Positions 23,102 through 32,494 of a DNA stretch of 32,658 bases are shown here, piece after piece. The notes beneath the pieces were generated by a model. It was not told where the DNA came from and ran no database searches. It worked only from the letters and a program-made list of their open reading frames with translations. The stretch comes from Flavobacteriales bacterium (GTDB lineage: Bacteria > Bacteroidota > Bacteroidia > NORP154). Numbering within the stretch: the first letter of the stretch is position 1; each line of letters begins with the position of its first letter. A program made the position numbers and the translations under genes. The stretch is taken from positions 1 through 32,658 of the forward strand of contig JAESRW010000165.1 in assembly GCA_016764395.1 (NCBI GenBank), given 5' to 3'.

Positions 23102-25777
23102 ATGGTTGTTATTAAATATCCGGTAGTTACAGCCTTTTTCTATTGTAAGTATAAAGCATATTTACTTCATAATTTATGTGGGAATTACACACCAACTGAG
23201 TATGAAGTTTTAATAGATAAAACAAAAGAAAAAGTGACGAACTCTTTTTACCAGAAAAACGAGGCTAGCACATATTTCGATGGAATCCTTAAGGAGGGAA
23301 AATATTTGGTCAAAAGTACCAGAATCAATCTCGGCCTCTTTGAATTTGATTGTAACTATCTACTGAAGAAAGAAGGTAAATCCAGGCTAGGAATGCATTT
23401 CTATGAACCCGGGATTTTTATCAGCTCAAACAAAATTTTGAAAGAAGATCGTTTACAGGTAACATATTTAGCCCTATTGCTTCAAAAGATTCAAGGTAAA
23501 TTACCCAGTCAAGCACATATAATATGTCGGGACGGTAAGCCTCACAGGATAAAGATGGGCAAGGCAATAAGTGAAATGAAAATATTACTCGAAGAAATAA
23601 TTCAACTTGAAAAGAACAAACCCAGATTATTTTTGAACAAGCATTGTTCTCAATGTGCCTTCAAAGAAAAATGCAAAGCAAAGGCCATAAAAGACGACAG
23701 TCTTACTTTGCTTAATCGAATTTCAGAGAAGCAAATTCACAAGTATGAAAGAAAGGGCATATTTTCAATTAAGCAACTTTCATTTTTATTTAAACCACGA
23801 AGGAAAAATAAGAGAACTAAGATTCCTATTTACTCTTACAAACCTGAATTGCAGGCATTGGCTATTCGCACAAAAAAAATTTATGTGAGTACATTACCAA
23901 ATTTATACAGGAAACCAATTGAAATTTTTCTTGATATCGAAAGTATTCCAGACGAAGATTTCTTTTACCTTTTTGGAATCCATATTTCCGATGCGAAATC
24001 CACAAAATATCAACCCTTTTGGTCAGATTCAATCGAAGAAGACAAAATGACTTGGATGGGGGTCCTGAAATTATTAAAATCCTATCCAGATTCATGGATA
24101 TATCATTATGGTCACTACGAACCTTATGTCTTTGATGTAATGGCCAAACGTTACGCTACAAATATCGATTGCCTCAAAAATAGGTTTGTAAACCTAAACA
24201 CTTTCATATTTGGTAAAATCTACTTCCCTACTTATTCAAATGGTCTAAAAGAATTATGCCAATCTTTTGGAATGAATTGGTCGAATAAGAAATCTTCCGG
24301 CCTACAAAGCATTGTTTGGCGAAAAAATTGGGAAACTGGAAGGAAAAACTTCAAAGAGACACTACTTCTATATAATAAAGAGGATTGCATGGCATTAAAG
24401 ACACTTTGTAACGAATTGACACGCATTCAAACATATTTCGATACAGCTGCTGATATTGAATCAAGTCAGAATCCCAAAAAAATTGCCTCAAAAAACAGCC
24501 ATAAAATGCATGGCCAATTTAACCTAGTCCTAAAATTTGCTCACAACCAGTACAACAAGAGAAAAATTTCTGTAGACCTTCAAAAAAGTAAGATCAAGAA
24601 GATACAAAAAAAGAAAAAAAGTAAGGGTGGATTTAGATGGTTGGGCAAAAAGCTAAACAAGCCAAACAAATCAATTTTCATGAAGGTTGATGAGTATTGT
24701 CGTAAACACACTGATCAAAAATTAACAAAATCGAAGAAGAAATTTAAAAAGGTGCAAATCGACCTAGTTTTTGGTAAAAATGGGATAAGAAAAACCACAA
24801 TTGAATATGTAGGAGAATGCGGCCATTGCCCCATTTGTAATAATGATTACGCATCTACCAAGTTTAAAGAATTAAGTAGAGAATTGTATAGTCATAATTT
24901 CAAAGCATGGTTTGTTTTCCAAAGAATAGAAATACAATTATCCTTTACCAAAATAAATAAAAGTTTAGTCGGTCTAATTGGTGATAAAGTAGGAGATTCT
25001 ACGGGACCTGAAGTCATTAAATGTTTCAGTTTATATTACAAAGACACAGCTAATCAAATTGTTCTAAATATTCTCAATAGTCCATTTATCCACGCGGATG
25101 AGACTACTGTTAGTATACGAGGTCAGCTTCAATACGTATGGATATTTACCACAGATAAACACGTTTCCTTCGTGTTATCGAAAAGTAGAGATGCGACTGT
25201 TATGAAAGATTTTCTTGCAAATTTTCGAGGGGTTTTGATTACCGATTTTTATGCTGGATATGATGCAATAGAATGTTCTCAACAAAAATGTTGGGTCCAC
25301 TTTATAAGAGATTTAAATAATGCTCTCTGGAAAAATCCATTTGATACAGAGTATGAGGAATTTGTTTCCAAAATTCGGGATATCATAATTCCCATAATTC
25401 AGTCGACATACCGCCATGGTCTAAAAACACGGTTTTTGGCAAAACATCAAAAAAACATCGACAAATTTTACGTTAGTGAAATTGATGATAAAACCTACAG
25501 TTCAGAATTGTGCCAATTATATCAAAAACGGTTTAAGAGGTATCGGAAAAGCCTATTTACATTTACACGGTTTGACGGAATAAGTTGGCACAACAACGCT
25601 GCAGAAAATGGTATTAGACATATTTGTGTACAAAGAAAAATATCAGGTTCCTTTGGAGGAGATCAGTTCCCACATTACCTAAGAATGGTTAGCATCATGA
25701 AAACTTGTAATTTACAGAATAAATCCTTTTTGAAATTTCTTCTTTCTAAACAAATGGATATAGACAGTTATAAATAG
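23102..25777 (+). CDS. RecB/Cas4-like nuclease + DEDD exonuclease-like + IS66-type transposase fusion
   Basis: One 891-aa reading frame with three modules. Residues 1-195 match the TM0106 RecB-like nuclease family: Cys15 with C182, C185 and C191 give the Cas4/AddB-type 4Fe-4S pattern, D83 (FEFD), E102 (YEP) and K111 are candidate metal or catalytic residues, and RLQVTYLALLLQKIQG is the conserved helix. Residues 272-440 are an RNase H/DEDD domain: DIES (D278, E280), YHYGHYEPYVFDVM and YNKEDC (D428). Residues ~570-880 are an IS66-type DDE transposase: a small CxxCxxC knuckle (C573-C579), HADETT (D666), TDFYAGYD (D715), KCWVHFIRDLNN, and NNAAENGIRH (E835). A Lys-rich linker (490-555) joins the parts. 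AT-rich codons set it apart from the core genes. No IS66 helper genes or terminal inverted repeats were found. Confidence 0.85.
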   Translation: MVVIKYPVVTAFFYCKYKAYLLHNLCGNYTPTEYEVLIDKTKEKVTNSFYQKNEASTYFDGILKEGKYLVKSTRINLGLFEFDCNYLLKKEGKSRLGMHFYEPGIFISSNKILKEDRLQVTYLALLLQKIQGKLPSQAHIICRDGKPHRIKMGKAISEMKILLEEIIQLEKNKPRLFLNKHCSQCAFKEKCKAKAIKDDSLTLLNRISEKQIHKYERKGIFSIKQLSFLFKPRRKNKRTKIPIYSYKPELQALAIRTKKIYVSTLPNLYRKPIEIFLDIESIPDEDFFYLFGIHISDAKSTKYQPFWSDSIEEDKMTWMGVLKLLKSYPDSWIYHYGHYEPYVFDVMAKRYATNIDCLKNRFVNLNTFIFGKIYFPTYSNGLKELCQSFGMNWSNKKSSGLQSIVWRKNWETGRKNFKETLLLYNKEDCMALKTLCNELTRIQTYFDTAADIESSQNPKKIASKNSHKMHGQFNLVLKFAHNQYNKRKISVDLQKSKIKKIQKKKKSKGGFRWLGKKLNKPNKSIFMKVDEYCRKHTDQKLTKSKKKFKKVQIDLVFGKNGIRKTTIEYVGECGHCPICNNDYASTKFKELSRELYSHNFKAWFVFQRIEIQLSFTKINKSLVGLIGDKVGDSTGPEVIKCFSLYYKDTANQIVLNILNSPFIHADETTVSIRGQLQYVWIFTTDKHVSFVLSKSRDATVMKDFLANFRGVLITDFYAGYDAIECSQQKCWVHFIRDLNNALWKNPFDTEYEEFVSKIRDIIIPIIQSTYRHGLKTRFLAKHQKNIDKFYVSEIDDKTYSSELCQLYQKRFKRYRKSLFTFTRFDGISWHNNAAENGIRHICVQRKISGSFGGDQFPHYLRMVSIMKTCNLQNKSFLKFLLSKQMDIDSYK

Positions 25778-25809
25778 GTTATGGATCTAATCGCTTTACA
25801 ACTCTAGGT

Positions 25810-25865
25810 ATTTCGGAGCAGACAGTGCCACCCATTTCGGAGTAAACCATGCCACTGATTTCGGA
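25810..25865. repeat. 24-bp tandem repeats resembling an IS21-type transposon end
   Basis: Copies ATTTCGGAGCAGACAGTGCC(ACCC) at 25810-25833 and ATTTCGGAGTAAACCATGCC(ACTG) at 25834-25857, then a third partial ATTTCGGA from 25858. The period is exactly 24 bp. Multiple TTTCGGA...TGCCAC transposase-binding repeats mark IS21-family termini in Bacteroidota (recalled pattern, not searched). No istA or istB is present, so this would be an orphan end. The rest of 25866-26121 is AT-rich without a recognisable gene. Confidence 0.5.
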
Positions 25866-26148: not shown

Positions 26149-26307
26149 ATGGCTAAACCAATTAAAGAAACACCAGTTCTAAAAGGTAAGGACGCTGTTA
26201 ACTTCATCAAGTCCATGAAGAAGGCGGAAAAGACCAGGGTGGACAAATCTGTCAAAAAAAGGATGACGGATAACTTTAAGAGTTTGAACGCCATCGCCCA
26301 GTTTTAG
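26149..26307 (+). CDS. small basic protein, probable antitoxin of the GNAT toxin
   Basis: A 52-aa protein, MAKPIKETPVLKGKDAV then NFIKSMKKAEKTRV and a helical basic tail ending NAIAQF. It is too small for the DUF1778 ribbon-helix-helix antitoxins that usually pair with TacT-type toxins, and no DNA-binding motif is plain, although the Lys/Arg content is high. Its stop codon TAG shares its last base with the GTG start of the acetyltransferase gene (TAGTG), the tight coupling expected of a toxin-antitoxin pair. It has its own promoter box. An out-of-frame ATG at 26144 was discounted. The function rests on position and size. Confidence 0.7.
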   Translation: MAKPIKETPVLKGKDAVNFIKSMKKAEKTRVDKSVKKRMTDNFKSLNAIAQF

Positions 26308-26837
26308 TGGATTTATCGGAGCTAGCGTTAATACGACTGTCGGACTCCTACCCTATTAAACCATTCGATTGCGGCGATAACGATCTGAACGAATTCCTGC
26401 TAGGCGATTCCAAAAACTACTATTCTCAGTTACTGGCTGTAACTTACCTCCTTGAATTTGCTGAGGAAACGGCTGCATTTTTCAGCCTGCTCAATGACAA
26501 AATTTCAATTGAAGACGCGGATAGTAAAAGAAAGTGGCGGAAGATTTTCAGGGATATAATGCCGGAAGGAAAACGGTTTAAAAGCTATCCTGCGGTAAAA
26601 ATCGGACGACTAGGGGTCGGCAATACTTTTCAGGGTGATGGATTGGGAACCGTTATTTTGGATTATGTAAAAGAATTATTCATTGATAACAACAGGACTG
26701 GCTGCAAATACCTCACTGTGGACGCTTACCTTAGATCATTGAGATTCTACGAAAAAAATGGCTTCGAGTACCTTACCGAGAAAGACAAGGATTCAGAAAC
26801 CCGATTGATGTATTTTGATTTAACTGCGGTTGCTTAA
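26307..26837 (+). CDS. GNAT acetyltransferase, probable toxin (TacT-like)
   Basis: A 176-aa acetyltransferase starting at GTG 26307. The opening DSYPIKPFDCGDNDLNEFL matches the FxCGxxxLDxFL lead-in of TacT/AtaT-type toxins, which acetylate the amino group of charged aminoacyl-tRNAs and block translation. Motif A is RLGVGNTFQGDGLGTVIL (residues 101-118) with the QGxGxG acetyl-CoA loop, and YLRSLRFYEKNGF holds the conserved Tyr148 at the position of the catalytic Tyr in TacT. A charged insertion (residues ~63-92) separates the N-terminal sheet from motif A. The pairing with a 52-aa upstream protein supports a type II module. The target tRNA is unknown. Confidence 0.85.
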   Translation: MDLSELALIRLSDSYPIKPFDCGDNDLNEFLLGDSKNYYSQLLAVTYLLEFAEETAAFFSLLNDKISIEDADSKRKWRKIFRDIMPEGKRFKSYPAVKIGRLGVGNTFQGDGLGTVILDYVKELFIDNNRTGCKYLTVDAYLRSLRFYEKNGFEYLTEKDKDSETRLMYFDLTAVA

Positions 26838-26978: not shown

Positions 26979-28478
26979 ATGGCTAAGAAAAAACAAGAAA
27001 TCAACCCTCGGGAATATATGGAGCTGGCCATATCCGTCATGAACCAATCCATACAGGAACCCCGCGAAGATAAAGTAAGCCCAAAAGTAGGTGCGCTATT
27101 AATAAAACCAGATGGCACCGTAGAATCGGCATGTAGAGGTGAACTGCGCCATGGAGACCATGCCGAATTCACTTTATTGGAACGCATGAATCGCTCTAAT
27201 CCATTAGACGGCTCCATATTATTTGCTACGCTTGAGCCCTGTGCTCCCGGTGCTCGCAAACACCCAAAACTGGGTTGTGCAGAAAGAATAGTAGCTGCAA
27301 GAATTAAAAAAGTTTGGATAGGCATTGAAGATCCAGACCCGGCTGTAGATAGAAAAGGAATCAAATACCTATTGGATAGTGGCGTAGAGGTGGAAATGTT
27401 TGATGCCGATTTGCAGGATGAAATTCGCAAAGCAAACAAGCAATTTATTTTGGAAGCAGAAGAACGGGCGAAAAAAGCAAAAGCAGAACCAATTGCAATT
27501 ATACTGTCCGAAAAGGAACGAGGGGAGCCAACTGCTGATTTAAAAGATCTTTCCTCAGCTAATCTTCATGCGTTCATTAAGAAGGCAAAACTGAACGTAG
27601 AGCTAGACACTCCTCAGTTTAATCGCATCTTCACACAGTTGGGGTTAATGGAAAATAAAGATGGCAAATACCTTCCAACGGGATTAGGTCTTTTACTCTT
27701 TGGAGATAGGCCACAACTCACCTATCCTCACGCCCTGATAAGAGCAACCTTTAAAACTGCGGGCAGAGGCGAAGATATTGATACCATTGAAGGGCCATTA
27801 ATAGAACAAGCTGACAAAATACAAAGCTGGTATGAGGCCCGGATCGGTAAGCAAATAGATCGCTCAAGCTCCAGTCGGAAAACGATTTATGATTATCCTT
27901 TAGTGGTATTTCGAGAGGCCATTATTAATGCTATTGTCCATAGAGACTACGATATTGATGGAGCGCCCATTTATTTTGAAATAAATGATGATGCCATTAT
28001 CATCAAAAGTCCTGGAGAGCCGGTAAAACCATTAAAAATGGAACAGATTAAACGCTTTAATGCACCTTCTCTCAGCCGAAATCCAAAAATCATGTATGTA
28101 TTTGACCAAATGGAATTGGTTGAGCAACGTGGTCTTGGTTTTCAAACGCTTAAGGAACTACCCGAAAAGTTTGACTTGCCACTTCCTTTAGTTTCTTATG
28201 AAGAGCCTTACATGGTATTTACTTTCCCGAGAACAGGTGATGCTTTGAAAGAGGTTTCAAGTAATGAAGGAGTTAAATCACTTACTAACGAGGAGCTAAA
28301 AGGATATAATTGGATTAGATCTCAAGAAGAAGTTGCGACCAAAAATTATGCAGATAAGTTTGAATATACCCAAAGAACCGCAAGCAGACATCTAGCAAAA
28401 ATGCTCGATTTAGAACTTATTGCAACGAATGGTGAAAGTAGCAAATCACCTAAATTAAGATACAGGGCCATTGAATAA
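26979..28478 (+). CDS. deaminase-GHKL ATPase-winged helix fusion protein
   Basis: A 499-aa protein. Residues ~10-160 are a cytidine/RibD-type deaminase: HAE at 61-63 (His ligand, catalytic Glu) and PC at 87-88 with C100 completing the zinc site. Residues ~180-260 are a linker with LSSANLHAFIKK and GLGLLLFGDRP, as in proteins annotated as putative DNA-binding or RecG-C-like. Residues ~300-400 are a HATPase_c_4/RecG-C-type domain: FREAIINAIVHRDY (N box) and EQRGLGF (G box). The C-terminus (~440-480) is a winged helix (EVATKNYADKFEYTQRTASR). No membrane segment. The reaction and the substrate are unknown. Fusion of a base deaminase with a nucleotide-binding sensor in an accessory region suggests a phage-defence or stress role (inference). 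Confidence 0.82.
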   Translation: MAKKKQEINPREYMELAISVMNQSIQEPREDKVSPKVGALLIKPDGTVESACRGELRHGDHAEFTLLERMNRSNPLDGSILFATLEPCAPGARKHPKLGCAERIVAARIKKVWIGIEDPDPAVDRKGIKYLLDSGVEVEMFDADLQDEIRKANKQFILEAEERAKKAKAEPIAIILSEKERGEPTADLKDLSSANLHAFIKKAKLNVELDTPQFNRIFTQLGLMENKDGKYLPTGLGLLLFGDRPQLTYPHALIRATFKTAGRGEDIDTIEGPLIEQADKIQSWYEARIGKQIDRSSSSRKTIYDYPLVVFREAIINAIVHRDYDIDGAPIYFEINDDAIIIKSPGEPVKPLKMEQIKRFNAPSLSRNPKIMYVFDQMELVEQRGLGFQTLKELPEKFDLPLPLVSYEEPYMVFTFPRTGDALKEVSSNEGVKSLTNEELKGYNWIRSQEEVATKNYADKFEYTQRTASRHLAKMLDLELIATNGESSKSPKLRYRAIE

Positions 28479-28636: not shown

Positions 28637-28701
28637 TAAAGGCTAAAGAAGTGAATATACACGGAGGAAGAAACAACGGATACATCCGTCTAATTGGATA
28701 A
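28564..28701 (+). CDS. possible 45-aa small protein
   Basis: ATG at 28564 opens a 45-codon frame with protein-like composition: MSMYVQVSNASANELGHKLR, then HSVQVKAKEVNIHGGRNNGY and IRLIG. It begins inside the 15-bp palindrome and its last four codons overlap the stop end of the convergent minus-strand gene. It may be a real small gene, or the end of a decayed one because the frame stays open upstream to 28523. No family was recognised. Confidence 0.3.
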   Translation: MSMYVQVSNASANELGHKLRHSVQVKAKEVNIHGGRNNGYIRLIG

Positions 28702-29163
28702 TTTACGCCCCAGAACAATCCCCCCAACAAAAATCCCAACCCGCTCTATTCTACGCCAAAACTTCCTACGCCTTCTCTTTCGCTTAACCTCCATATTCCC
28801 CTCATGGTCAATCCTGATGTCCCCATATTCAGGTAGTGGGTATTCAGCAATCAAGGGCAACCCCTCCGGTGTAATAGTATGAATCTTCGCCAATTTAGGC
28901 GTGAGTTCTACGGAAGTTATCAATGTGTCCTTCTCGATACTCTCACGGTACACGGTATCGGTCTTATAAATGTAAATCTTGACTGGCTTTTCAACTTCAA
29001 CCTCTTTGATTACGATTTCCTTGTACGACCTATCAACATAGATAGTATCCGTTTGGATGAGGGTTGGAGCAGGGGAGTACAAACAACCTTCCGTCCAAAA
29101 GAGGTATAAGAGGAGACCACTGGCCAACACTCCCATCACAAAATATGTCACGCCCTGCTTCAT
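28690..29163 (-). CDS. membrane-anchored small protein, distal gene of the prophage-like cassette
   Basis: A 157-aa protein with an N-terminal membrane helix (YFVMGVLASGLLLYLFW), a single Cys at the end of the helix (EGCLY), a strand-rich charged middle (IVIKEVEVEKPVKIYIYKTD), a very basic patch near residue 130 (KRKRRRRKFWRR) and a short hydrophobic end (VGIFVGGIVLG). This layout is seen in small Bacteroidota phage or mobile-element proteins of unknown function. It starts within the stop of the RadC-like gene (ATGA), so the two are coupled. It may be a minor membrane or lysis protein, but that is a guess from context. Confidence 0.7.
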   Translation of the reverse strand: MKQGVTYFVMGVLASGLLLYLFWTEGCLYSPAPTLIQTDTIYVDRSYKEIVIKEVEVEKPVKIYIYKTDTVYRESIEKDTLITSVELTPKLAKIHTITPEGLPLIAEYPLPEYGDIRIDHEGNMEVKRKRRRRKFWRRIERVGIFVGGIVLGRKLSN

Positions 29164-29729
29164 AAATCACCTTCATCTGCAAATGAATAATGCCCTTCTT
29201 TGGTGAGAATAAAATGATCCAACAAAGCAATGTCAATCACTTTACTTGCTTCTTTGACTTTACGGGTCAATGAAAGATCCGCCTCACTTGGTTTCAGATT
29301 CCCGGATGGGTGATTGTGAGCAAGGATGATACTTGAAGCCAACGCCTCCAATGCCACAGAAAAAATCAATCGTATATCTGCGATGGTTCCACTAATACCG
29401 CCTTTGCTCAACAACTGGTAGCCCAATACACGGTTGGAACGATCTAACATCAGCACGACAAATTCTTCTCGGGCTTCAATCTGAGAACTCCAAACTGATC
29501 GCAACACTTCTACAGCTTCAGCAGATCTTGTGATTTTTGGGCGTTCGGAGGTCTTTAGCTTCTTGCTGTATACAATACGGATTTTCGGGGGGCGCAGTTT
29601 TTTGGCTGCACTGCCTAAACCTGCCTGCTTTACATTACGGGTTAAAAACCAAGTGACAATGAGTACGCCTGCTACGGTGTAAAAGGCAATGTTGCCAAGC
29701 TGCTTTCTTTTGGTTTTAGTCAATCGCAT
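29160..29729 (-). CDS. RadC/JAB-domain protein with N-terminal membrane anchor
   Basis: A 189-aa protein. The ATG at 29729 (MRLTKTKRKQ) is preferred because it clears the M15 stop; a GTG at 29768 would add 13 residues and overlap that gene. A membrane helix follows a basic start (IAFYTVAGVLIVTWFL). The C-terminal ~110 residues are a RadC/MPN+ domain: EEFVVLMLDR (upstream Glu), HNHPSG (two His of the zinc site) and SEADLSL with the Asp ligand, i.e. the complete JAMM pattern. Soluble RadC proteins are common on mobile elements, and their role is not settled. A membrane-tethered form is unusual. It overlaps the next gene by 4 nt. Confidence 0.85.
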   Translation of the reverse strand: MRLTKTKRKQLGNIAFYTVAGVLIVTWFLTRNVKQAGLGSAAKKLRPPKIRIVYSKKLKTSERPKITRSAEAVEVLRSVWSSQIEAREEFVVLMLDRSNRVLGYQLLSKGGISGTIADIRLIFSVALEALASSIILAHNHPSGNLKPSEADLSLTRKVKEASKVIDIALLDHFILTKEGHYSFADEGDL

Positions 29730-29733
29730 GGCC

Positions 29734-30366
29734 TTAGGCAAGATTGACGTATTCCCCTTGCCGGTCACCGCTTACATACAGATTTTGTAATTGAGCCAAA
29801 GACCTTCCGAAACGCATTTCAAAATGGGGTTTGTCCTTGATGCTTTTGAAGTCTCCGCCCCAGGCAAAGCCAATGCTTTTCCCAAGTTTGGCAATCTTAC
29901 TCCAGTTGGGGTTGCTCCACAGGGCTTTGCCCTCCTTGATCTCGACCACGTCAATGGCCAGACCGAAGTTGTGCAAACTCTGGCCACCCTTGGCATTGGT
30001 GACTATTTTTCCTCCTTCGCTACCGCTTCGGCGGACACGTCCAGTTTTGGTTCTTCCCTGAGCATATAGCCCGTCCTGCTCACTCCAGGTTCTTAGCGCT
30101 GATGTGACCCTCAGCTTAATACCGAGTTCTCTTTCAGCACGAATTATAAACTCTTTGGCTTTCGCCTGGATAAGTGGATGAAGTGTTCCAATTCGTCTGT
30201 CTGAAACAATGTCCCAGGTCTGTTCCAGGATGAAGTTGATGGTATCCATAGCTAAGCGTTTTAATTGTTTTCGTTTTCTATATGCAATGACTGTAATGAG
30301 CGCCAGTACCAGAGTTATGACAGCATATCCCACTGCGTTGGGCTTGAATTTTATTTCTGATGCCAT
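29734..30366 (-). CDS. M15 family peptidoglycan peptidase with membrane anchor
   Basis: A 210-aa protein. One membrane helix lies at residues ~11-30 (AVGYAVITLVLALITVIAY). The M15 zinc peptidase domain follows: SALRTWSEQDGLYAQGRT (Arg92 region), SLHNFGLAIDVVE (H132 and D139 as zinc ligands) and KPHFEMRFG (H181). Relatives are phage endolysins of the L-alanyl-D-glutamate type and D-Ala-D-Ala carboxypeptidases, which cut peptidoglycan peptides. Attachment through the N-terminus would hold the enzyme on a membrane, either host inner membrane or a virion membrane. It lies in the middle of the minus-strand cassette, 20 bp after the annexin-like gene. Confidence 0.9.
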   Translation of the reverse strand: MASEIKFKPNAVGYAVITLVLALITVIAYRKRKQLKRLAMDTINFILEQTWDIVSDRRIGTLHPLIQAKAKEFIIRAERELGIKLRVTSALRTWSEQDGLYAQGRTKTGRVRRSGSEGGKIVTNAKGGQSLHNFGLAIDVVEIKEGKALWSNPNWSKIAKLGKSIGFAWGGDFKSIKDKPHFEMRFGRSLAQLQNLYVSGDRQGEYVNLA

Positions 30367-30386
30367 AGTTCAATTCTTGCATCCGG

Positions 30387-30815
30387 TTAAGTGGCGATGT
30401 CATGCCAGTTCTGAAAGTCGTCAGCATCCAGTTCCTTTCTTAATCGGTCCGTGAGCGCTTCATTAAATTTCAGGCGGTATGCTGCAGCCACATCCGGAAG
30501 CCTGCCTTTGGTATCTCTTGCTAGTAGTTTGAGTGCTTCTTCATCCGTGCCGTCAAAATCTATCATCGCTTCAAAACCGGAAGGATTGGAAGCTGCCCGG
30601 TACCGTTGTGCCAATTGATTGACATCCTTGCCCTCGTTTCGATTGAACCTCTTTTCACGTCTGTTGGCTTGCCACTTTTTTACTCCACCCTTTATTATGA
30701 CAATCAGGGTGAAGATCACAATCCCGAGCTGCACGAACTTGTTACTCAATACTGCCTTGGTGGCCTTCAAAGCCCCATTTGCTGCCAATGCTATTGCTGG
30801 ATTTCCCAATGCCAT
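30387..30815 (-). CDS. membrane-anchored protein with one annexin-like repeat
   Basis: A 142-aa protein. The first 25 residues are Ala-rich, then comes a membrane helix (FVQLGIVIFTLIVIIKGGV, ~28-46) and a basic stretch (KKWQANRREKRFNR). Residues ~80-140 resemble one annexin repeat: DFDGTDEEALKLLARDTKG matches the GTDE calcium-loop helix start, and VAAAYRLKFNEALTDRLRK followed by ELDADDF matches the Y-x-x-x-F/Y-x-x-x-L...EL...F end of the repeat. The first Gly of the canonical GxGTD loop is missing. Real annexins use four repeats, so a single copy on a membrane anchor is odd. This assignment is from pattern reading only. Confidence 0.7.
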   Translation of the reverse strand: MALGNPAIALAANGALKATKAVLSNKFVQLGIVIFTLIVIIKGGVKKWQANRREKRFNRNEGKDVNQLAQRYRAASNPSGFEAMIDFDGTDEEALKLLARDTKGRLPDVAAAYRLKFNEALTDRLRKELDADDFQNWHDIAT

Positions 30816-30826
30816 ACCTTTTGTTT

Positions 30827-31075
30827 TTAAGAGAATCTTGTGAATGCCTTCCTTGCAATATTCAGGTAGTCTCCCATAGTGAGTTCCTGCCCATCTTCTG
30901 GGGCGACTTCCTTGATAAACTCAATGATCTCCGGGTTCTCAACAATGACATCGACGGCTTGTACCAAATCGTCGTGGTGCATGTTGTCCATTAAGTCCTG
31001 GAATGCCTGGAGCTTTTCTTCTAAAGCCTCGGGGCTCTCAGCTTCGATACTTAGGTTAACCGTATAAGTCTTCAT
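30827..31075 (-). CDS. small acidic protein, function unknown
   Basis: An 82-aa soluble protein starting MKTYTVNLSIEAESPEALEE. A predicted beta strand is followed by acidic amphipathic helices (KLQAFQDLMDNMHHDDLVQA, VIVENPEIIEFIKEVAP). There is no signal, membrane segment or Cys. It is spaced 11 bp from the annexin-like gene and 2 bp after the coiled-coil gene, so it is in the same transcription unit. No family recognised; small size and position suit an accessory or scaffolding protein. Confidence 0.72.
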   Translation of the reverse strand: MKTYTVNLSIEAESPEALEEKLQAFQDLMDNMHHDDLVQAVDVIVENPEIIEFIKEVAPEDGQELTMGDYLNIARKAFTRFS

Positions 31076-31077
31076 TC

Positions 31078-32112
31078 TTAGTTTGTTTTTGATTCTTCGT
31101 ATTGAAAATTGTCATCCTGTTCCTCTGCATTTTGCTCTGGTTCGAACTTAGCTGGAGGTTCCTGTTCAGTTAAGGGTTCTTCTTCGGATAAATCCACGGT
31201 GGACATGTCAGGTAACACCTCGTCGATCACATTCGGAACATGCTCCTGCTCTTCATACTTGGCGATCTCTTCTTCAATCTCCTGATCTAAATCATCCGTG
31301 TTGTGATTAGGATCGGGCTCAATGGAGAACTTTACTTTACTCCGTTTCCTGGGCTTTTCTTGTTCTTTGTCCGTGCTGCCTAATCCTTTCTCTGGGTTCC
31401 TTGCGCTGTCCTTGATCCAGTCCTTTACCATGCCTCCCAATGCATTGGGAATTACTTTCAAATATCCCTTTACATCGTCCTGGATCTCCCGCTGCTTTTC
31501 ATCGATCGACTGTTCAGCGAGTGCCAGGGTATGTTCCCTTTCGTTAAGGCGGTTTTCACGCTCTGCCAGTAGCATTTCCTTAAACTTGATGTTTTGCTCG
31601 ATCAGCTTGTTGTGCATGTCCTGTTTCATGCCTTCGTTCTTCAGCTCGTACTCTTTGCGCAAGCCGGTCAACTGCATATCCAGTTCATCCTTGAAGGCAA
31701 AGGGTTCCGCCTGAAGGACTCTTGGTTCAGGAGCCGGCTCTGGAGCCGATGTGGTGAGGTTGATATTGACATTTCCGTGTTTGTCCACGTCATGGGGCAC
31801 TCCGTTTATCTTGACCGTTTCATCAGATTCAGGTTCTAACCAGTCAATTTCTTCATTGATCTTGATAAAAAAGGGTGGGTTCTGTCTTGCAGACTGCTCG
31901 TTTGTACCGTATTTGATCTGCACTTCTGCATCTACACCGTCACTTATAATCTTATCAAGCACTTCAGAGAATGACTTGCTTTCCGGATTATTTTCATCTA
32001 CCGCGTTTATGGTGACGCCGTTATCATCCTTGACAGACCAGTACTTGTAGCGGGTGACCTTCTTTTTGGCCAGCTCAGCGTTGATATAGTTCTTAACTTT
32101 CTGCATTGTCAT
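31078..32112 (-). CDS. coiled-coil protein of the prophage-like cassette
   Basis: A 344-aa soluble protein. Residues ~1-115 form a mixed alpha/beta head (RYKYWSVKDDNGVTINAVDE, then FFIKINEEIDWLEP). A Pro/Ala linker (TSAPEPAPEPRV) leads into a long coiled coil, ~140-215 (GMKQDMHNKLIEQNIKFKEM, EHTLALAEQSIDEKQREIQD). A short amphipathic helix (IPNALGGMVKDWIKDSA) and a strongly acidic tail complete it. The start overlaps the preceding 133-aa gene by 20 nt; ATG at 32106 is an alternative. The head-rod-tail build would suit a scaffold, spike or structural protein, but no family was recognised. Confidence 0.75.
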   Translation of the reverse strand: MTMQKVKNYINAELAKKKVTRYKYWSVKDDNGVTINAVDENNPESKSFSEVLDKIISDGVDAEVQIKYGTNEQSARQNPPFFIKINEEIDWLEPESDETVKINGVPHDVDKHGNVNINLTTSAPEPAPEPRVLQAEPFAFKDELDMQLTGLRKEYELKNEGMKQDMHNKLIEQNIKFKEMLLAERENRLNEREHTLALAEQSIDEKQREIQDDVKGYLKVIPNALGGMVKDWIKDSARNPEKGLGSTDKEQEKPRKRSKVKFSIEPDPNHNTDDLDQEIEEEIAKYEEQEHVPNVIDEVLPDMSTVDLSEEEPLTEQEPPAKFEPEQNAEEQDDNFQYEESKTN

Positions 32113-32494
32113 CAGTAAATGTTACTCTTACATACCGAATGAAGAAGCCCGTTTTCTCTCCTACAAATCTGATCTTTACATTGCTCCAATGACGGCTGAT
32201 AAGTGGGCTTTCTATGTAATCGTAGTAGTTAATGGAGCTTTGGATTTTAGCCCGGTAATAGACCCTTGTGTTCTCTCGGTTGTAGCTGACCTTAGTAGTC
32301 CCTGAAACCAAATCGACCGTAAACGGATCTCGCTGCTTGGTGGAGAAATAGCAGACATACACAGCTTCGTTTGCGCCTACTTTGATCTGTTTAGGGTTTT
32401 CTGCTAATTCATCAGTCATATAGAAACAGGTAATGCCCTTTGTGAGCATGTCCTGTTTGATCATTTCCGTAAGCAGCGTATCGTTGGTATTCAT
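32093..32494 (-). CDS. 133-aa protein of the prophage-like cassette, beta-rich
   Basis: A 133-aa protein without signal or membrane segment. A helical start (NTNDTLLTEMIKQDMLTKGI) is followed by alternating strands (EAVYVCYFSTKQRDPFTVDL, NTRVYYRAKIQSSINYYDYI, VKIRFVGEKTGFFIRYVRVT). The beta-sandwich look is compatible with a small structural or capsid-accessory protein, but this is inference. Its ATG overlaps the stop of the upstream partial gene by 4 nt (ATGA) and its end overlaps the coiled-coil gene by 20 nt, so the whole set is translationally coupled. Confidence 0.75.
   Translation of the reverse strand: MNTNDTLLTEMIKQDMLTKGITCFYMTDELAENPKQIKVGANEAVYVCYFSTKQRDPFTVDLVSGTTKVSYNRENTRVYYRAKIQSSINYYDYIESPLISRHWSNVKIRFVGEKTGFFIRYVRVTFTDDNAES

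What the first reader, a model, noticed from the sequence alone, without database searches (positions are those of the whole stretch)
23102..25777. Fe-S RecB/Cas4-like nuclease, DEDD exonuclease and IS66 transposase in one polypeptide
Three enzyme modules with apparently intact key residues (4-Cys cluster, D278/E280/D428, D666/D715/E835) share one 891-aa frame. Typical IS66 elements encode the transposase with small helper genes and lie between inverted repeats; neither was found. A self-contained protein that can both process DNA ends and make a DDE-type cut could be a new transposon class or a domesticated DNA-processing or defence enzyme. The separate TM0106 and IS66 families are known; whether the full fusion has been studied is unknown to me.
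Basis: partly seen in the sequence, partly recalled or inferred. Interest (0 to 1): 0.75.

Follow-up and report, generated by a model that had tools for sequence, protein, structure and literature searches.

The report
Conserved nuclease–transposase fusion protein
A single 891-residue bacterial protein joins a DNA-repair-type nuclease scaffold to a transposase; relatives with the same layout occur, rarely and usually one per genome, in Bacteroidota-type genomes and cyanobacterial plasmids, so it is a real and apparently undescribed protein family, but the evidence does not show it to be a transposon.

Summary
ORF 23102-25777 encodes one intact 891-aa protein: a TM0106-type part (RecB/Cas4-like Fe-S domain plus DEDD RNase-H-like domain), then a zinc ribbon and an IS66-type DDE domain. 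It is not a chimera: the architecture recurs in nine other full-length loci, including finished plasmids of Calothrix and Acaryochloris, at 29-50% identity, under purifying selection (dN/dS roughly 0.05-0.12 in three testable pairs).

Two corrections. (1) The four Fe-S cysteines are kept, but the PD-(D/E)XK motif of true TM0106 nucleases ("DTK") is absent in every member, so that module is probably a non-catalytic DNA-binding platform; DEDD and DDE sites are intact. (2) Nothing supports a classical transposon: no terminal inverted repeats at ten loci, no IS66 helper genes, usually one copy per genome. The gene sits in accessory regions: here low-GC, beside a tRNA; elsewhere sometimes beside AbiE, ThsB/Nmad2, SoFic or VapBC.

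Best reading: a horizontally spread, probably domesticated DNA-processing enzyme (defence or inter-element competition; role inferred). A one-gene mobile unit without inverted repeats remains open: in Nostocales plasmids homology breaks at the start and stop codons. Novelty: new variant of known kinds.

The parts
23102..25777 (+). CDS of the fusion protein, 891 aa
   Evidence: 33% GC against 43-44% in the flanks
23102..23701 (+). RecB/Cas4-like Fe-S domain (about residues 1-200); Cys15 at 23144-23146, Cys182/185/191 at 23645-23674
   Evidence: TIGR03491 match, Cas4 matches, invariant cysteines
23402..23425 (+). Place where ordinary TM0106 nucleases carry the catalytic D-x-K (YEVIDTKL); here YEPGIFIS, motif lost
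23924..24418 (+). DEDD-type RNase_H_2 exonuclease-like domain; D278, E280, E340, Y424, D428 kept
24698..24838 (+). Zinc-ribbon-like linker (C533, H536, C576, C579)
   Evidence: invariant C533/C576/C579
24884..25663 (+). IS66-type DDE domain; D666 25097-25099, D715 25244-25246, E835 25604-25606
22390..22464 (+). tRNA-Arg(acg), left limit of the accessory region
   Evidence: conserved in congeners whose right-hand sequence differs
22622..22645 (+). Imperfect second copy of the tRNA 3' end (att-like duplication)
26150..26837 (+). Small ORF (26150-26308) overlapping a GNAT acetyltransferase gene (26307-26837): toxin-antitoxin-like neighbour pair, not part of the fusion
   Evidence: the toxin-antitoxin reading is inference

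Best explanation
The gene encodes a self-contained DNA-processing enzyme that arose by fusion of a TM0106 (COG2251) nuclease with an IS66-type DDE transposase. Proposed working: the Fe-S RecB/Cas4-like domain, having lost its own catalytic motif, holds a DNA end or a single-/double-strand junction; the DEDD domain trims or degrades a 3' strand; the DDE domain, helped by the zinc ribbon, cuts or joins DNA there. It is not the transposase of a classical insertion sequence. It is passed horizontally as a single accessory gene in tRNA-linked islands, on plasmids and, in part, in defence islands. Its most likely job is to act on foreign or extrachromosomal DNA (defence or competition between mobile elements). 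Shown by sequence: architecture, kept and lost residues, purifying selection, accessory context, lack of inverted repeats. Inferred: every biochemical step and the biological role.
For: Same architecture in ten full-length loci incl. finished cyanobacterial plasmids; nuclease halves one clade against TM0106 (100/100); dN/dS about 0.05-0.12; DEDD and DDE residues kept, D-x-K lost throughout; no inverted repeats; one copy in most genomes; low GC beside a tRNA with an att-like duplication; defence or toxin-antitoxin genes adjacent in several loci: AbiEi/AbiEii twice, ThsB and Nmad2, SoFic, VapC; in one genus it takes the same slot, between shared flanking sequences, as an HsdM/HsdR module.
Against: Several loci show no defence neighbour and no matched control neighbourhoods were scanned, so enrichment is unproven. 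Truncated and deleted copies (L067, L070, L086, L004) also fit a mobile element. No biochemical evidence of any kind. The PD-(D/E)XK loss rests on sequence alignment; a shifted active site is not excluded.
Confidence: 0.5

Rival explanations
1. A one-gene mobile element without inverted repeats: the unit that moves is practically the ORF itself, cut and joined by the DDE domain, with the DEDD domain trimming flaps or gaps.
For: In Nostocales plasmids L005 and L067 are 94% identical to the stop codon and not beyond; the 5' match stops within about 5 bp of the ATG; L067 is an internal-deletion copy (22 bp + 235 bp); L070 has a 27-nt remnant ending at the same stop codon. L005 against the gene-free relative L066 breaks at the same left point. 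Patchy distribution, low GC, two copies in G973, triad kept.
Against: Few junctions, in plasmids that recombine freely. No inverted repeat or target duplication. Two G973 copies share about 190 bp upstream of the ATG, so the unit is not ORF-exact there, and that leader also precedes unrelated genes. Mostly single, long-diverged copies.
Confidence: 0.33
2. An ordinary IS66-type insertion sequence whose inverted repeats were missed.
For: Clear DDE_Tnp_IS66 match; IS66 subgroups without helper genes exist (ISBst12; own knowledge).
Against: Below the NCBIfam IS66 cut-off; no repeat at ten loci by alignment against shuffles; fusion conserved with a TM0106 half; single copy.
Confidence: 0.1
3. A chimera, frame-joined neighbour genes or an assembly artefact.
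For: The window comes from a 330-contig draft genome.
Against: Same fusion in finished plasmids and independent genomes, with the linker cysteines conserved.
Confidence: 0.01

Closest known systems
TM0106 family RecB-like putative nuclease (TIGR03491; COG2251: DUF83/Cas4-like + PF13482)
   Same: Whole N-terminal half: Fe-S cysteines, DEDD domain, domain order (family description in PMC3985635)
   Different: Catalytic D-x-K lost; IS66-type DDE domain where COG2251 proteins frequently have tandem AAA (helicase-type) domains
IS66 family transposase (PF03050, NF033517)
   Same: DDE domain with triad and zinc-finger-like cysteines upstream
   Different: Only about 20-25% identical to stand-alone IS66 proteins, under NCBIfam cut-off, no TnpA/TnpB, no inverted repeats, fused nuclease half
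Cas4 / Dna2 nuclease domain
   Same: Fold match (4r5q 4.5e-4, 5ean 4.8e-4) and four-Cys arrangement
   Different: Catalytic D/E-x-K absent; no CRISPR or helicase context
TnsA-TnsB type nuclease-transposase pairs (Tn7-like; from own knowledge, not tested)
   Same: A nuclease fold coupled to a DDE transposase
   Different: Different nuclease and DDE families; here the PD-(D/E)XK-like module appears dead and no transposon ends were found

Membership tests
IS66 insertion sequences | IS66-type DDE domain with intact triad | tested here: met
   PF03050 3.5e-31, D666/D715/E835 invariant
IS66 insertion sequences | Score over the curated IS66 transposase cut-off | tested here: not met
   165.8 bits against 180
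IS66 insertion sequences | Terminal inverted repeats | tested here: not met
   No consistent repeat in ten loci, nor in the window repeat scan
IS66 insertion sequences | Target-site duplication | tested here: inconclusive
   No clean pair of filled and empty site was found
IS66 insertion sequences | Helper genes tnpA/tnpB (absent in the ISBst12 subgroup) | tested here: not met
   No such neighbours; stand-alone IS66 loci L118 and L119 do show tnpB
TM0106 / COG2251 nucleases | TIGR03491 match over cut-off, with RNase_H_2 | tested here: met
   210 bits against 97.45; PF13482
TM0106 / COG2251 nucleases | Four Fe-S cysteines | tested here: met
   C15, C182, C185, C191 invariant
TM0106 / COG2251 nucleases | PD-(D/E)XK catalytic motif | tested here: not met
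   DTK replaced in all fusions compared
TM0106 / COG2251 nucleases | C-terminal AAA/helicase part (frequent, not universal) | tested here: not met
   Replaced by the DDE domain
Anti-phage defence genes | Location among defence genes | tested here: inconclusive
   Yes in L084, L087, L088, L059; no in L003, L005, L082; no control set
Anti-phage defence genes | Protection against phage | not testable with these tools
   Needs a plaque assay

The most novel reading that the evidence does not exclude
A new kind of single-protein DNA-mobilising or DNA-capturing enzyme: a DDE strand-transferase combined with its own DEDD end-trimmer and a dead Fe-S RecB clamp, which either moves an ORF-sized unit without inverted repeats or uses strand-transfer chemistry against invading DNA.
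Probability: 0.3. Interest if true: 0.82.

Novelty: new variant of a known kind. Interest (0 to 1): 0.55.

Why it matters
In this family the motor that often follows a repair-type nuclease is replaced by a transposase, and one of three catalytic sites is dropped while the other two are kept. If the DDE site is active without transposon ends, it would be a DDE enzyme used for something other than moving its own element, or a mobile unit that needs no inverted repeats. Both are directly testable with one protein.

Tried and rejected
Chimera or assembly error: rejected, finished plasmids carry the same fusion. Classical IS66 element: inverted repeats sought by repeat scan and by aligning up- and downstream sequence against shuffles; none consistent (single-locus hits at L003, L005, L082 and L087 with low p values lie at unrelated distances and share no sequence). 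Phage origin: no full-length relative in phages or IMG/VR. Solved relative by sequence: none. Empty-site comparison in Runella relatives: upstream genes conserved, but the insert is a 5.5-kb accessory stretch, so ends stay undefined. Empty-site comparison for G973 and G1037: gave a leader and trailer shared with a type I R-M module, not transposon ends; the 19-bp motif at the leader start occurs only on the left. Cyanobacterial chromosomes could not be searched (no genome handle). Wording of the samples: 2/396, 3/391, 5/395 and 4/294 genomes with a match, query genomes counted.

Full report
Observation. The window has an uninterrupted ORF at 23102-25777 (+), 891 aa. Pfam finds RNase_H_2 (275-439) and DDE_Tnp_IS66 (595-854). 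NCBIfam finds the TM0106 family nuclease (78-435, well over cut-off) and IS66 transposase (517-881, somewhat under cut-off). A model built from 11 related sequences has mean pLDDT 80.7 but pTM 0.51, so the domains are credible and their mutual placement is not. Its best solved matches are the ISCth4 DDE transposase, Cas4 Pcal_0546 and Dna2; its best viral matches are giant-virus RNase_H/YprB-type proteins.

A real family. Full-length relatives were found in a Runella MAG (49-50%), a Calothrix plasmid (41%), an Acaryochloris conjugative plasmid (32%), a genome of the Runella order (L059, 29%), and in G208 (31%), G973, G1128, G1266 and G1281. Partial or broken copies occur in L004, L085, L086, L088 and L090. 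About 1% of sampled genomes or fewer have it. The window's own genome has one copy. The nuclease halves of all fusions form one clade against stand-alone TM0106 proteins (100/100); the DDE tree is weak at its base (57/33) because the ordinary IS66 proteins used are very distant, but it recovers the same subgroups. One fusion event followed by joint inheritance is the simplest reading, better shown for the nuclease half than for the DDE half. Pairs close enough to test show dN/dS of roughly 0.05-0.12 (L084-L085, L084-L086, L087-L088; synonymous sites are near saturation, so these are rough), with constraint in every quarter compared. L060, L084 and L085 have extra C-terminal repeats.

Which sites are alive. 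All four Fe-S cysteines, the DEDD residues (with E340 at the middle motif, as in ordinary TM0106 proteins) and the DDE triad are invariant. In contrast, where stand-alone TM0106 proteins read YEVIDTKL or YEVTDTKL, the fusions read YEPGIFIS, YEPALFLG, YEPTIIIG, YAPILFHG, and the further members also lack a D/E-x-K at that place. The RecB/Cas4-like module is therefore probably a non-catalytic DNA-binding platform. [quoted passage not shown] that last part is replaced here by the transposase domain.

Mobility. IS66-type ends were sought at ten loci: no consistent inverted repeat. In the window the gene lies to the right of a tRNA-Arg; relatives share the M48 peptidase gene and the tRNA but not what follows. 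A partial tRNA 3' end is repeated about 160 bp further on and the gene is 33% GC between 43-44% flanks: an island, entered horizontally (inference). In Nostocales plasmids, L005 and L067 are 94% identical to the stop codon and not beyond, the 5' match stops within about 5 bp of the ATG, L067 is an internal deletion of 22 + 235 bp, and L070 keeps 27 nt ending at the same stop codon. This fits an ORF-sized mobile unit, but there are few junctions and these plasmids recombine freely, so it is recorded as the main rival. In G973 two copies share about 190 bp upstream of the ATG, and that leader, with a trailer, also flanks an HsdM/HsdR module in G1037, as if the gene were one of several cassettes in one slot.

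Context. Defence-type or toxin-antitoxin neighbours: AbiEi/AbiEii immediately downstream in G1128 and G1091 (AbiE proteins 47-49% identical, the fusion C-termini 87%); Nmad2 and ThsB in G973; SoFic in L059; VapC in Acaryochloris; a GNAT and small-ORF pair in the window. Other loci show none. No control neighbourhoods were scanned, so this is suggestive only.

Conclusion. The finding is genuine and, as far as the open library searched here shows, undescribed. It is best filed as a new variant: a TM0106-type protein whose RecB site appears dead and whose C-terminal partner is an IS66-type DDE domain. Most likely it works as a DNA-processing enzyme carried on islands and plasmids and directed at foreign or mobile DNA; whether it can also move itself is open.

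Noticed in passing
window 26979-28478 (+): 499-aa protein with a dCMP-deaminase-like N-terminal domain and a RecG-like/HATPase_c_4 C-terminal part; an unusual combination in the same accessory region.
   Followed up: no
window 25805-25865: 61-bp sequence, 93% identical to a place on contig C300 of the same genome, with short tandem repeats of 'ATTTCGGAG..TGCCAC'; looks like the end of another insertion sequence.
   Followed up: partly
window 22510-22645 and G000 contig C48 (L051): Degenerate copies of the tRNA-Arg 3' end and its downstream sequence recur on contig C48 near a tyrosine recombinase gene: scars of tRNA-targeted integration.
   Followed up: partly
L084 8442-8665, L113 5495-5633, L114 end, L116 3963-4068, L115 2751-2806: A shared leader starting with TGAGAGACTTAGGTATATT precedes unrelated accessory genes (fusion, HsdM, others) in one genus: possible cassette or integration site.
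   Followed up: partly
L067 5308-5361 (also L073, L074): 54-bp non-coding sequence, 96-98% conserved between unrelated places on several Nostocales plasmids and partly palindromic: possible recombination site.
   Followed up: no
L063 5001-5951 (Bradyrhizobium plasmid pCB82_1): A 316-aa hypothetical protein matches only the first 304 residues of the Calothrix fusion (29%): a stand-alone or truncated RecB-like half.
   Followed up: no
window 28690-32494: RadC, a VanY/endolysin-like peptidase and several unmatched ORFs on the minus strand suggest further mobile-element genes to the right.
   Followed up: no
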